DNA of 64,000 nt from Gammaproteobacteria bacterium Gsub (GTDB taxonomy: Bacteria > Pseudomonadota > Gammaproteobacteria > PS1 > Pseudothioglobaceae), in NCBI GenBank assembly GCA_002007405.1, contig JYIN01000005.1, forward strand, positions 1 through 64,000, given 5' to 3'. Below the pieces are notes generated by a model that made no database searches, had not been told where the DNA came from, and worked only from the letters and a program-made list of their open reading frames with translations. Made by a program: the position numbers and the translations under genes. Below are positions 8,397 to 64,000 of the stretch, piece by piece; positions within the stretch are counted from its first letter, which is position 1; every line of letters starts with the position of its first letter.

Positions 8397-9017
8397 ATGA
8401 TAAACAAAATTTTATTTTTTTCATTATTATTACTAATCGGGCGTTTATTTGCCGAGGATATTGATGGATTTTTTTTCTTAAAACAGCCCATACAACAAGC
8501 GCAAGGCGTGTCTTTTGATTTTGCCCTTGAGCCTGATTTATTGCAACGGGCATATACCAGCATTTTGCGACATAAAACCGCGCTGGGGATTGAAACTGAA
8601 GCGGATTTAGTTTGGAGGAAAATCACCACCGACCGTTTTAAAAATCAGCACATCCATTTTGGTCTGGTTTATCAAGGCCTTGAAATTGAAAATATGCAGA
8701 TTATCGTCCATTTTAAAAAGTCGCAGGCGCGGTCGTTGAGTGGCTTTCAAAAACCCTTATCAGTGGCTTTTAAAAATAAAATTGATATGGCTTTAAATGA
8801 CGGCAAAACTCACTTAAATGCTACCGAAGTGCTGGATTTTATTACTCAAGATCTAAGCGATTTTAAATTGATTGAAAATAAGCCAATCATCATCCAAAAA
8901 GCCCCTTATGTGGTCTGGCGAATTTATCTTGTAGTTGATGGAATCGGTAACATCTGGACTCTTAGCGACAGTAATCCGCCACAAATATTATCTAAAAAAT
9001 TAGATATTAAACATTAG
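8397..9017 (+). CDS. Stand-alone M4-protease propeptide (FTP/PepSY-like), secreted
   Basis: The start at ATG 8397 gives a signal peptide (MINKILFFSLLLLIGRLFA); an upstream in-frame frame overlaps the RND gene and is unlikely. The mature 180-odd residues resemble the thermolysin-family propeptide: a 'HIHFGLVYQGLEIEN' then 'IIVHFKKSQARSLSGF' segment (FTP type), then a PepSY-like stretch ending 'YVVWRIYLVVD' near residue 185. No catalytic motif is present. The stop codon at 9015-9017 directly abuts, in the same frame, the ATG of the catalytic protease gene. So the foldase/inhibitor prodomain is made as a separate exported protein. Family assignment is from pattern, not a search. Confidence 0.7.
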   Translation: MINKILFFSLLLLIGRLFAEDIDGFFFLKQPIQQAQGVSFDFALEPDLLQRAYTSILRHKTALGIETEADLVWRKITTDRFKNQHIHFGLVYQGLEIENMQIIVHFKKSQARSLSGFQKPLSVAFKNKIDMALNDGKTHLNATEVLDFITQDLSDFKLIENKPIIIQKAPYVVWRIYLVVDGIGNIWTLSDSNPPQILSKKLDIKH

Positions 9018-10568
9018 ATGAATAAAATAGTCAGTTTATTGTTATTGACACTATTGTCAGCTTGTGGCGGTGGCGGTGGCGGTGTAACACCAACACCAAC
9101 AACATTTAACGAAATTAATGAAAATATGGCAGCCCCTTATGTTGTTAATAATATCCCTCCAGGTTTAGCAGAGATAGAAATACCCACTGGGTTTTGCCCT
9201 CAGGATGCTTGTTGTCAAGTGTTAGTTAGAGAAGAAGAAGGGACTAGTGTATTAGATACGGGAAATGTGCTAAACATTTTAAATAAAGGCAGTCAAAGTG
9301 TTGTAGAGGAGAATAAATTAGTAAGATTAGTAACCCAAACACAAGGCACTATTAGCTTACTTATAATCCCGACTGATGATGCTAACACCTGTTTTTATAC
9401 CACACCAACCCTAACCATAGTGGCAAATACAAACACCGCCCAAGTTAAAATCAACCCACAAGGTGATGGCAGGCAACATCTAAATTTAGATGCGATTAAA
9501 GTCGGCAAGCATTATTATTTGCGTGATATTAGTCGTCGCGGGGCAAGTTTGACCATGACTGCACAAATACAAACCCTAAAATCTATCGGTGTGGGCGATA
9601 ATAAATTCGTCCGCCACAGTGCTAGCTCGGTGGATAATCTCAACCCAGATGGGGCTGATGCCCACGCCAATTCTATAGCAACCTATGATTATCTTAAAGA
9701 TGTTTTGGGGGTTAACGGTTATGATGACCAGGGCTCTTCTATGTTAGCCGTTACTGATTATTTATATCCTCGCAGTGAGATAACATCATGTGGCTCGCTT
9801 GTTGCTCCAGGTGCGTGGTTCAATGCCTTTTACTCAGGAGGCAGTAATGCGATTTATTATACACCCGCTAAACCAGAACAAGATTTTGATAAAAGCCTAT
9901 CTACTGCACTGAATGTGGCAGCCCATGAATGGGGGCACGGTGTTACTGGCAATATAGGGGCCGATTTTATTTATACGCGTGAGTCGGGAGCGTTGGATGA
10001 GGCTTTTTCAGACTGGCTAGGGATTGCCGTAGCACGATCCACCGGCTCTAATAGCTGGGAAATAGGGCTTGAAGGTCGAAGTTTTCGCTCACTGCAAAAT
10101 CCAGAAATGTTTGTTACACAATACAGCATGGGAGAAAATTATAAAATTATAAAAAACGGCGTTGTTTATCAACCATCAGTAGGCGAGAAAATACCCTATC
10201 CCAACACTTACAAAGGCGAGAATTGGATCTTGGCTGATACCCAAAACTGCTTACCTAGGCGCTGTGAGAATGATTATTGTGGGGTACATACTAATAGCAG
10301 TGTGGCAAATAAAATGTTTTATTTATTATCCGTAGGTGGCGTCCACAATGGTATTAGCGTTAGTAGCATCGGCATTGAAACTGCAATGAAGATTGCCTTA
10401 GATGCCAATAGAAATTATTGGAATAGCAACAGTAATTTTCATCATGCTAAAGCCGGGATGATAGAGGTTGCTCAAGATTATGGCAACACCGAAAACGGGG
10501 ACAACATACAACAACAAGTTAGATTAGCATGGGAGGCAGTCGGGGTAACCGATGCAACACAGCCTTAA
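9018..10568 (+). CDS. Thermolysin-type (M4) metalloprotease, lipoprotein
   Basis: 516 aa. The N-terminus ends in a lipobox (LLSAC, Cys 16) followed by a Gly run, so the enzyme should be lipid-anchored. The zinc and catalytic site is HEWGH (303-307). The third ligand is Glu 328 in 'GALDEAFSDWLG', and the transition-state His is 424 in 'CGVHTNSSVANK'. These match thermolysin H142-E143-H146, E166 and H231. Residues 20-170 do not contain the usual propeptide, which is encoded just upstream instead. Extra Cys residues (about 60-67, 125, 258, 411-421) may form disulfides. The likely role is an extracytoplasmic protease; the target is unknown. Confidence 0.9.
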   Translation: MNKIVSLLLLTLLSACGGGGGGVTPTPTTFNEINENMAAPYVVNNIPPGLAEIEIPTGFCPQDACCQVLVREEEGTSVLDTGNVLNILNKGSQSVVEENKLVRLVTQTQGTISLLIIPTDDANTCFYTTPTLTIVANTNTAQVKINPQGDGRQHLNLDAIKVGKHYYLRDISRRGASLTMTAQIQTLKSIGVGDNKFVRHSASSVDNLNPDGADAHANSIATYDYLKDVLGVNGYDDQGSSMLAVTDYLYPRSEITSCGSLVAPGAWFNAFYSGGSNAIYYTPAKPEQDFDKSLSTALNVAAHEWGHGVTGNIGADFIYTRESGALDEAFSDWLGIAVARSTGSNSWEIGLEGRSFRSLQNPEMFVTQYSMGENYKIIKNGVVYQPSVGEKIPYPNTYKGENWILADTQNCLPRRCENDYCGVHTNSSVANKMFYLLSVGGVHNGISVSSIGIETAMKIALDANRNYWNSNSNFHHAKAGMIEVAQDYGNTENGDNIQQQVRLAWEAVGVTDATQP

Positions 10569-51096: not shown

Positions 51097-52893
51097 TTAT
51101 TTTAAATATTTTTTGATGTTAAGTCGGTGTTGTTGATAGGTTTTTGCAAAGGCGTGAGTGCCATCTTTTTTAGCGACAAAATACAGTGCATCGCCGGCTT
51201 CTGGGTGCATGGCAGCATTCAGTGAAGACGCGCTTACAGAGCTAATGGGAGTGGGTGGTAGGCCTTGGTGTCGGTAAGTGTTATAAAGGCTATTAAATTT
51301 TAAATCTTGTTTTTTTAATGTACCATGATAACTTTTGCCCAGAGCGTAAATAACACTGGGGTCAGTTTGCAGGCGCATGCCTTTTTGCAAACGGCGTATA
51401 AATACTCCTGCTATTTTTGATTTTTCCTGATTATGCGCGGTTTCTTTTTCAATCAATGAGGCTAATATTAAGGCTTCATCAGCGTTTTTTAAGGGTAGAT
51501 TTTTTGCTCTATTTTGCCAAGCACTTGCCAGTTTTTGTTGCATTATTTGGTGGGCGAGTTTTAGAACGCTAACCACACTATCGCCATAATTAACTCGATA
51601 AGTATCAGCCCAAAAATACCCTTCATATGGAGGCTTTATTCCTGTTAATTGCATAGTTTGATTAAAATTACCCACTGATTTAAGTGCCTTATTTTGGCTC
51701 AGTTGTTGGTAATAATCAAAAATAGTTTTACCCTCAACTAAGGTAATTTTTCGCTTTGCAACCTGGGCGTTGGCAAAATTATTTAACAAAGTGGCTATCC
51801 CCATATTTGGCATAAGTTGATAATAACCGTGCTTTAATTTCTCGTCTTTATTTAATAATTTTGCCAATACAAACATGTATTTAGCAGAATCAATATAGCC
51901 TAAATTCTCTAAATTACTGGCGACGCTATGAATATTTGCCCCTGCAGGTAGATGATAAATAGTAGATTTTTGTAAATTGATATCTTTAACGCTATAAAGC
52001 CAAATGCCCAGTAATAACAGCAAAATAATCAATAGTCTTGACCATGAAAAATAACGCCTATGTTGAACTGGCTTTGAATGTTTGGGTGAATTTTGCAAAC
52101 TCAAAACCGCATCTTGAATACGCTGGGTTATATTGTCTGAGTTAAACAAATGCCCATTGATTTCATTCACGGGTTTTACCCCAATCACTGCGTTAGTAAT
52201 AAATATTTCATCACAATCAAGTAATTCTGGTAAAGACAATGCTTTGATACGCACCTGCAAATTCAGATCATTGGCCACGGCTAAAACCATCGTCCGGCGC
52301 GTGCCTTCAATGCCACACTTTGATAAATCAGGCGTTAATAAAACTCCAGAACGAATAGCAAAAATATTGCCCTGGGTAACCGAGATGACTTGCTGGTTTT
52401 CATCTAACATGATGCACTCATCAGCACTCATGCCACTTCTGGCTAATATTTGCTCAAGACGATTGCAATGCTTAATAGCCGACAATAATTGATTACTGCT
52501 ATAGCCACTACGACAAGTGGTAAGAGTGTATTTTTGGGGTATTTTCTCAGGCATTTTTGAGACTATAACCACACGCGTTGGGTGGATATTTTTCTCAAAA
52601 CCATAGCCCCGCATTGTCGTCCCACGAGAGAGTATAATTTTCACTACGCCGTGGTTTAATTTGGCAATTGATAGGGCTTTGGCAATATCTTTTAGCCAGA
52701 ATTTTTGGGCAATGGGGTTAATTTTAAGTTGTGTGCGACCTTTTTCTAATCGCGAAAAGTGAGCTGCCCAAAATAATAACCTGCCCTCAGCAAACAAACA
52801 AGTTTCAAATACCCCATCGCCAAATTGAGTGAGGCGATTAAACACACTTAACTTAGATTGCTTTTTTCCATCAATCAATATAATGCTACGCAT
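51097..52893 (-). CDS. pabC-mltG: Fused aminodeoxychorismate lyase-endolytic murein transglycosylase (PabC-MltG)
   Basis: 598 aa. Residues 1 to about 265 are a class IV PLP enzyme of the PabC type: 'FGDGVFETCLF', 'LSRGTTMRGYGFEKN', the PLP Lys in 'LSAIKHCNRLEQILA', and 'EGTRRTMV'. A membrane helix (about 283-302, LLIILLLLLGIWLY) leads to an MltG/YceG domain: a LysM-like 'IYHLPAGANIHSVASNLE', then 'LVEGKTIFDYYQQL'. The catalytic Glu is in 'LASLIEKETAHNQ', followed by 'LQTDPSVIYALG'. In E. coli these are two adjacent genes. The lyase would be cytoplasmic and the murein enzyme periplasmic. Confidence 0.92.
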   Translation of the reverse strand: MRSIILIDGKKQSKLSVFNRLTQFGDGVFETCLFAEGRLLFWAAHFSRLEKGRTQLKINPIAQKFWLKDIAKALSIAKLNHGVVKIILSRGTTMRGYGFEKNIHPTRVVIVSKMPEKIPQKYTLTTCRSGYSSNQLLSAIKHCNRLEQILARSGMSADECIMLDENQQVISVTQGNIFAIRSGVLLTPDLSKCGIEGTRRTMVLAVANDLNLQVRIKALSLPELLDCDEIFITNAVIGVKPVNEINGHLFNSDNITQRIQDAVLSLQNSPKHSKPVQHRRYFSWSRLLIILLLLLGIWLYSVKDINLQKSTIYHLPAGANIHSVASNLENLGYIDSAKYMFVLAKLLNKDEKLKHGYYQLMPNMGIATLLNNFANAQVAKRKITLVEGKTIFDYYQQLSQNKALKSVGNFNQTMQLTGIKPPYEGYFWADTYRVNYGDSVVSVLKLAHQIMQQKLASAWQNRAKNLPLKNADEALILASLIEKETAHNQEKSKIAGVFIRRLQKGMRLQTDPSVIYALGKSYHGTLKKQDLKFNSLYNTYRHQGLPPTPISSVSASSLNAAMHPEAGDALYFVAKKDGTHAFAKTYQQHRLNIKKYLK

Positions 52894-63527: not shown

Positions 63528-64000
63528 TTATAAGTTAGCACTATAAGGCAAGGATTTAATATAATCTTCCATAAATTTCCAGTCTGGGTTGCCTTGATTG
63601 TCTACAGGAAGTTTAATTTTAGTTTTTAATAGCCTTTCTCCAGTCCAACTCCTACCGAATGAATATTTTGGTCTTTCTTGGTCAAGAATTGCCACAAGGA
63701 ATAGGGCGTTATATTTATTAAGGTTTTCATTATATCCACAAGATGTTTTACCGCTCATACCTATAAAATCATTTTCTTGATATGTTGTATAACCTGCACT
63801 GCCAGCCCCTATGTGGATAAATACAATACAATTTCCTTTAGAGATGTATTGGCTATTCTCTTCCTTTGCACACATTGCATTTAGCCCATTATTAGATTTT
63901 TTTGCAGCAATATAAGGTACTTCGTCTCCTTTTGTTAGTTCGTTTGTTGTTGCTCCCCTGGTGTCTTCTATATTTGTAAAAATTTCATCAAGTGCAAAAT
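63528..64000 (-). CDS. Restriction-modification protein, specificity-domain 3' end (partial)
   Basis: The frame is open from the right edge to the stop at 63528-63530 (about 157 residues). The segment 'GDEVPYIAAKKSNNGLNAM', then 'GNCIVFIHIGAGSAGYTTY' and 'FIGMSGKTSC' follows the pattern of a type I/IIG target-recognition domain (Methylase_S-like: GxxPYI, NNG, and a Gly-rich strand). It ends 'LPVDNQGNPDWKFMEDYIKS', which is common at the C-termini of type IIG enzymes and HsdS. The main body, including any methylase or nuclease motifs, is outside the window. Confidence 0.6.
   Translation of the reverse strand, partial: FALDEIFTNIEDTRGATTNELTKGDEVPYIAAKKSNNGLNAMCAKEENSQYISKGNCIVFIHIGAGSAGYTTYQENDFIGMSGKTSCGYNENLNKYNALFLVAILDQERPKYSFGRSWTGERLLKTKIKLPVDNQGNPDWKFMEDYIKSLPYSANL

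What the first reader, a model, noticed from the sequence alone, without database searches (positions are those of the whole stretch)
8397..10568. Thermolysin-type protease split into separate propeptide and catalytic genes
The first gene looks like an FTP/PepSY propeptide with its own signal peptide. The second is an M4 enzyme with complete zinc and catalytic residues and its own lipobox. They are in the same frame and separated only by a stop codon and a new ATG. A propeptide acting in trans on a lipid-anchored protease would be an unusual maturation scheme.
Basis: partly seen in the sequence, partly recalled or inferred. Interest (0 to 1): 0.7.

Follow-up and report, generated by a model that had tools for sequence, protein, structure and literature searches.

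The report
Protease with separately encoded folding partner
A thermolysin-type enzyme that is normally made with its folding and inhibiting "propeptide" attached is here made as two proteins from neighbouring genes, an exported propeptide and a lipid-anchored protease. The split is kept in related bacteria and goes with the machine that places such lipoproteins on the cell surface, which suggests a natural propeptide that works from outside the enzyme.

Summary
Window 8397-9017 encodes a 206-aa exported FTP protein (Pfam FTP 4.8e-7). Window 9018-10568 encodes a 516-aa M4 lipoprotein with all catalytic residues and no propeptide. The split is not a broken gene. Five intact pairs in four genomes and three genera of the family all consist of an exported FTP ORF of about 200 aa followed at once by an M4 lipoprotein ORF. 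In the relatives the two overlap as TAATG in different frames, so no read-through fusion is possible. Profile comparison puts the cut exactly between the FTP+PepSY propeptide and the catalytic domain of canonical fused M4 proteases. About 22 fused FTP-M4 proteins surveyed show no lipobox; all six M4 proteins of this group have one.

New here: in three relatives the pair lies beside type II secretion (T2SS) genes gspL-M-N. All four genomes with an intact protease have a T2SS, present in only 12 of 83 family genomes. The window's genome has gspN, and the protease carries the C-GGG signal reported for GspN-dependent surface lipoproteins.

Best reading: a trans-acting propeptide folds and restrains an M4 protease that T2SS/GspN moves to the cell surface. 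Splitting lets the enzyme keep its N-terminal lipid anchor. Binding, folding and surface location are inferred. Both structure models failed.

The parts
8397..9017 (+). Stand-alone FTP/PepSY propeptide-like protein, 206 aa, exported
   Evidence: Pfam FTP 4.8e-7; hhalign to the propeptide region of fused M4 proteins E 2.9e-9; intact orthologues of about 200 aa in three other genomes
8397..8453 (+). Predicted Sec signal peptide of the FTP protein (MINKILFFSLLLLIGRLFA)
   Evidence: read from sequence; the hydrophobic N terminus is kept in relatives; no signal-peptide predictor was run
8604..8735 (+). FTP motif (residues 70-113)
   Evidence: Pfam PF07504 match; only FTP match in the genome
9015..9020 (+). 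Gene junction TAG|ATG, likely translational coupling
   Evidence: sequence; the relatives have an overlapping TAATG junction instead
9018..10568 (+). M4 (thermolysin-type) metalloprotease lipoprotein, 516 aa, no propeptide in the chain
   Evidence: Pfam Peptidase_M4 and Peptidase_M4_C; PDB matches to bacillolysin, thermolysin, aureolysin and elastase
9054..9065 (+). Lipobox LSA|C
   Evidence: sequence; LLSAC conserved in all six family M4 proteins
9066..9083 (+). GGGGGG after the acylated Cys; matches the C-GGG sorting signal of GspN/T2SS surface lipoproteins
   Evidence: motif definition from PMC12802150
9165..9452 (+). Cysteine-containing domain of unknown family (FCPQDACCQV...CFY) between the anchor and the catalytic domain, approximate borders
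   Evidence: conserved Cys positions 60, 65, 66 and 125 in all six M4 proteins; no Pfam match
9822..9833 (+). NAFY substrate-binding motif (thermolysin NAFW)
9924..9938 (+). HEWGH zinc-binding motif
9987..10013 (+). GALDEAFSD, third zinc ligand Glu 328
10281..10298 (+). GVHTNS, catalytic His 424

Best explanation
A conserved two-gene module. The FTP/PepSY propeptide of an M4 protease is made as a separate soluble exported protein, and the catalytic part is made as a lipoprotein. Proposed steps: both cross the inner membrane by Sec; the FTP protein binds the catalytic domain in the periplasm, assists its folding and keeps it inactive; the folded lipoprotein is moved by the type II secretion system with GspN to the cell surface, where the partner is lost or degraded and the protease acts while still lipid-anchored. 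The reason for the split would be topological: cutting off an N-terminal propeptide would release an N-terminally anchored enzyme, so the propeptide was moved to its own chain. Shown: the split, its conservation, both signal sequences, an intact active site, the co-occurrence with T2SS, and the sorting motif. Inferred: binding, folding help or inhibition, surface location.
For: FTP match and M4 match on separate ORFs. Five intact adjacent pairs in four genomes of three genera, with different frames in the relatives. Colinear cut: FTP family = columns 74-239 and M4 = columns 327-587 of the fused M4 profile. Purifying selection on both genes: FTP dN/dS about 0.10-0.17, M4 catalytic domain about 0.14-0.30 between relatives. 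In G088 two FTP copies are identical in protein while their M4 catalytic domains differ by 32%; in G090 a second intact M4 keeps only about 107 bp of a lost FTP gene, so one FTP may serve two enzymes. Both genes decay together in sister genomes. T2SS: the pair lies between gspN and gspC in G015 and next to gspL-M-N in G088 and G090; GspL is in 12 of 83 genomes including all four with an intact M4, Fisher p 2.7e-4; the window's genome has gspN; C-GGG or G/D/N-rich motif after the lipobox in all six M4 proteins as defined in PMC12802150. None of about 22 fused FTP-M4 proteins has a lipobox.
Against: No structure of the pair: AlphaFold models had mean pLDDT 48.6 and 34.5 and were not used. The orphan M4 in G090 could equally mean that this enzyme folds without FTP. 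The T2SS co-occurrence covers few genomes that are not independent. In the window itself the pair is not next to the T2SS genes, which lie on another contig. Glycine-rich linkers after a lipobox are not rare in general. No expression or protein data.
Confidence: 0.62

Rival explanations
1. The FTP protein is only an inhibitor of a self-folding M4 protease, protecting the cell envelope before secretion, like stand-alone subtilisin propeptides (family I9) or the RhpC-type partner of RhpP.
For: Stand-alone propeptide proteins studied so far are inhibitors (PMC6993865). RhpP is an M4 enzyme with no propeptide that is active without one and is inhibited by a separate small partner (PMC6490944). G090 has an intact M4 whose own FTP gene is lost.
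Against: The FTP protein spans the whole FTP+PepSY propeptide that folds canonical M4 enzymes, and it precedes the protease with a coupled junction, which suits a folding partner made first. G090 still has one intact FTP gene that could serve both enzymes.
Confidence: 0.25
2. One fused gene broken by a nonsense mutation or a sequencing error.
For: Same frame, only a stop codon between the two parts.
Against: The second part starts with a complete lipoprotein signal that would make no sense inside a fused protein. Relatives keep two ORFs in different frames. dN/dS is low.
Confidence: 0.02
3. Read-through or recoding of TAG makes some fused product in this genome.
For: In frame with no gap between stop and start.
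Against: Impossible in the relatives because the frames differ; the fusion would bury a lipobox and signal sequence.
Confidence: 0.03
4. The pair is in decay in this genome, as in its sister genomes, and has little function now.
For: Broken copies in G002, G015, G019, G081, G082, G083 and G084.
Against: Both window ORFs are full length with all active-site residues, and the T2SS cluster of the genome looks complete.
Confidence: 0.08

Closest known systems
Canonical M4 proteases with cis FTP+PepSY propeptide (thermolysin, bacillolysin, pseudolysin/LasB, vibriolysin)
   Same: same catalytic domain and motifs, same propeptide family, same order
   Different: propeptide and enzyme are one polypeptide there; here two genes, two export signals, and the enzyme is a lipoprotein
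RhpP-RhpC of Pseudomonas savastanoi (M4 enzyme without propeptide plus a separate chaperone/inhibitor; PMC6490944)
   Same: M4 enzyme lacking a propeptide, partner encoded in the same operon
   Different: [quoted passage not shown] here the partner is exported, encoded upstream and is itself an FTP propeptide homologue
Stand-alone subtilisin propeptide-like proteins (MEROPS I9: POIA1, yeast protease B inhibitor, SUB1-ProM; PMC6993865)
   Same: a propeptide fold encoded as its own secreted protein; SUB1-ProM also lies beside protease genes
   Different: serine protease family; those target proteases keep their own cis propeptide, here the enzyme has none
T2SS/GspN surface lipoproteins (InvL, PulA; PMC12802150) and the lipoprotein metalloprotease SslE
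   Same: lipobox followed by a G- or N/D-rich signal, T2SS with GspN in the genome, genes beside gspN in relatives
   Different: none of these is described as an M4 protease with a separately encoded propeptide; surface location not tested here
Stand-alone FTP lipoproteins upstream of full-length M4 genes in two other gammaproteobacterial families (G138, G274, G226)
   Same: separate FTP gene directly upstream of an M4 gene
   Different: there the M4 keeps its own cis propeptide and has no lipobox; the FTP protein is the lipoprotein

Membership tests
Peptidase family M4 | HEXXH plus downstream Glu zinc ligand and catalytic His | tested here: met
   HEWGH 303, Glu 328, His 424; Pfam M4 and M4_C above cut-off
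Peptidase family M4 | N-terminal FTP/PepSY propeptide in the same polypeptide (usual, not universal) | tested here: not met
   no FTP/PepSY match in any family M4 protein tested; the propeptide is a separate ORF
FTP/PepSY M4 propeptides | FTP motif above Pfam cut-off | tested here: met
   30 bits against 21
FTP/PepSY M4 propeptides | homology over the whole propeptide including the PepSY part | tested here: met
   hhalign columns 23-189 against propeptide columns 74-239, E 2.9e-9; no separate Pfam PepSY hit
FTP/PepSY M4 propeptides | folds and inhibits the cognate enzyme | not testable with these tools
   needs biochemistry
T2SS/GspN-dependent surface lipoproteins | lipobox with G/S- or N/D-rich P2'-P4' motif | tested here: met
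   C-GGGGGG in the window; C-GGDNG, C-GDKAIDN, C-GGGSGGG, C-GDNDDN in relatives (motif)
T2SS/GspN-dependent surface lipoproteins | T2SS with gspN in the genome | tested here: met
   gsp cluster on G000:C5 with GspL, GspC and GspN matches
T2SS/GspN-dependent surface lipoproteins | surface exposure dependent on GspD and GspN | not testable with these tools
   needs mutants and surface labelling
RhpC/emfourin-type M4 partner | partner belongs to the RhpC/emfourin family and is encoded downstream | tested here: not met
   the only significant Pfam family of the partner is FTP, and it lies upstream

The most novel reading that the evidence does not exclude
A naturally evolved trans-acting propeptide for a thermolysin-family enzyme, separated so that the mature protease can keep an N-terminal lipid anchor and be placed on the cell surface by the T2SS/GspN route, with one propeptide able to serve more than one protease.
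Probability: 0.5. Interest if true: 0.75.

Novelty: new variant of a known kind. Interest (0 to 1): 0.62.

Why it matters
Work on M4 enzymes has long asked whether the propeptide must be covalently attached. This would be a natural system in which it is not, with a clear structural reason. It would also link two recent themes, stand-alone propeptides and GspN-dependent surface lipoproteins, and give a small testable system for how T2SS handles a lipoprotein enzyme that must be folded, inhibited and then activated outside.

Tried and rejected
Broken gene, sequencing error and read-through: rejected because relatives hold the two ORFs in different frames. Co-folding: the window pair was folded as one chain by reading TAG as Q, a computational device only. 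Models had mean pLDDT 48.6 and, for the FTP protein alone, 34.5; no fold search was run on them. PDB sequence search with the FTP protein alone gave nothing; with the family profile the best hit was the thermolysin precursor, E 0.12, not significant. Genome-collection and viral scans found only distant canonical M4 genes and no FTP relative. Promoter and terminator scans were uninformative. Plasmid search found only distant M4 enzymes. Literature searches found no natural split M4 propeptide, but only an open-access subset is held.

Full report
The two genes are as described. ORF 8397-9017 encodes 206 aa and ends in TAG; ORF 9018-10568 begins at the next base and encodes 516 aa. The first matches Pfam FTP (residues 70-113, 30 bits, cut-off 21, E 4.8e-7) and starts with a hydrophobic signal sequence. 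The second matches Peptidase_M4 (5e-16) and Peptidase_M4_C (3.9e-32) and nothing else. Its closest solved relatives are bacillolysin, thermolysin, aureolysin and pseudomonas elastase. Active-site motifs are complete, and the N terminus is a lipoprotein signal with LSA|C followed by six glycines. Both are single copy in the genome.

The split is old and selected. A search of 83 genomes of the same family found the FTP protein adjacent to an M4 gene in G090, G095 and twice in G088, besides the window. Each has an exported FTP ORF of about 200 aa followed by an M4 lipoprotein ORF. In these relatives the junction is TAATG, so the two frames differ and a fused product is impossible. FTP proteins are 41-43% identical to the window's and M4 proteins 44-51%. 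The relatives carry long repetitive insertions between anchor and enzyme which the window lacks. Between relatives dN/dS is about 0.10-0.17 for FTP and 0.14-0.30 for the catalytic domain.

The cut falls at the propeptide border. Against a profile of ten canonical fused M4 proteins, the FTP family aligns to columns 74-239, the whole FTP+PepSY propeptide (E 2.9e-9), and the M4 family aligns to columns 327-587 (E 2.1e-35). No FTP or PepSY match occurs in the M4 proteins tested. In surveys of 369 genomes of the class and 398 of the phylum nearly all FTP matches lie in ORFs of 500 aa or more, that is, fused.

Other lone FTP genes exist but differ. In G138, G274 and G226 a lone FTP protein with a lipoprotein-like N terminus lies directly upstream of an M4 gene that still has its own cis propeptide. 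Two of these M4 proteins, in G274 and G226, appear by eye to end in a glycine-rich stretch, a hydrophobic segment and basic residues, like a C-terminal anchor; this was not tested. About 22 fused FTP-M4 proteins showed no N-terminal lipobox in a pattern scan, while all six M4 proteins of the family under study have one. The simplest reason, offered as inference, is topological: an N-terminal lipid anchor would be lost if an N-terminal propeptide were cut off.

One FTP may serve two enzymes. In G088 the two FTP proteins are identical (dN 0, dS 0.067), while the two catalytic domains are 68% identical (dS 0.93). In G090 a second, intact M4 gene has upstream only about 107 bp of a lost FTP gene, while one intact FTP gene remains elsewhere in that genome. 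This fits trans service, but would also fit an enzyme that does not need FTP.

Type II secretion. In G015 a decayed pair lies between gspL-M-N and gspC-D; in G088 and G090 a pair lies beside gspL-M-N. GspL occurs in 12 of 83 family genomes, including all four with an intact M4 (Fisher p 2.7e-4 without correction for kinship). In G082 both the pair and GspL are broken. The window's genome has a T2SS cluster with GspL, GspC and GspN. A 2025 paper reports that T2SS surface lipoproteins need GspN and carry a G/S- or N/D-rich motif right after the acylated cysteine, GGG or ND(N/D) at P2'-P4' (PMC12802150). All six M4 proteins here have a G- or G/D/N-rich stretch there, GGG in the window. There is no background rate for this motif in these genomes, so it is supporting rather than decisive evidence.

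Decay. In several sister genomes (G002, G019, G081, G082, G083, G084) fragments of the pair remain with frameshifts and stops, in G081 next to the same RND transporter gene that precedes the pair in the window. The module thus appears dispensable in part of the family.

Known parallels. RhpP is an M4 enzyme without propeptide that is inhibited and targeted by a separate partner, RhpC, which is not a propeptide homologue (PMC6490944). Stand-alone subtilisin propeptide proteins are known inhibitors (PMC6993865). From memory, not checked here: propeptides of thermolysin and of pseudomonas elastase have been reported to work when supplied in trans in the laboratory. I found no report of a naturally split M4 propeptide in the papers held.

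Structure prediction gave no usable model (mean pLDDT 48.6 for the pair read as one chain, 34.5 for the FTP protein alone), so the interface remains untested. Verdict: a real, conserved two-gene variant of the M4 protease system, most likely a trans-acting propeptide with a T2SS-exported surface lipoprotein protease.

Noticed in passing
window 51097-52893 (-): One 598-aa ORF holds both an aminotransferase class IV domain (PabC-like) and a YceG/MltG domain; these are usually two neighbouring genes.
   Followed up: partly
L043 1-679 (G090:C518): Intact second M4 lipoprotein gene preceded only by a remnant of an FTP gene, a natural loss of the neighbouring propeptide gene.
   Followed up: yes
L059 5465-6064, L061 4999-5580, L094 5779-6396: Lone FTP proteins with a lipoprotein-like N terminus directly upstream of full-length M4 genes that keep their own propeptide.
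   Followed up: partly
L042, L044, L045, L046, L047, L048: Fragmented remains of the FTP-M4 pair in six sister genomes, a possible series of stages of gene loss.
   Followed up: partly
L124 6541-7278: In the window's genome a prepilin peptidase gene sits between gspN and gspC, the place where G015 carries the FTP-M4 pair.
   Followed up: partly
window 63528-63998 (-): Edge of a type I restriction specificity gene.
   Followed up: no
L039 6836-9001, L040 8178-10001: The duplicated pairs of G088 are flanked by large repeat proteins (a lipoprotein-like ORF without Pfam match, and FG-GAP-like repeats read by eye).
   Followed up: no
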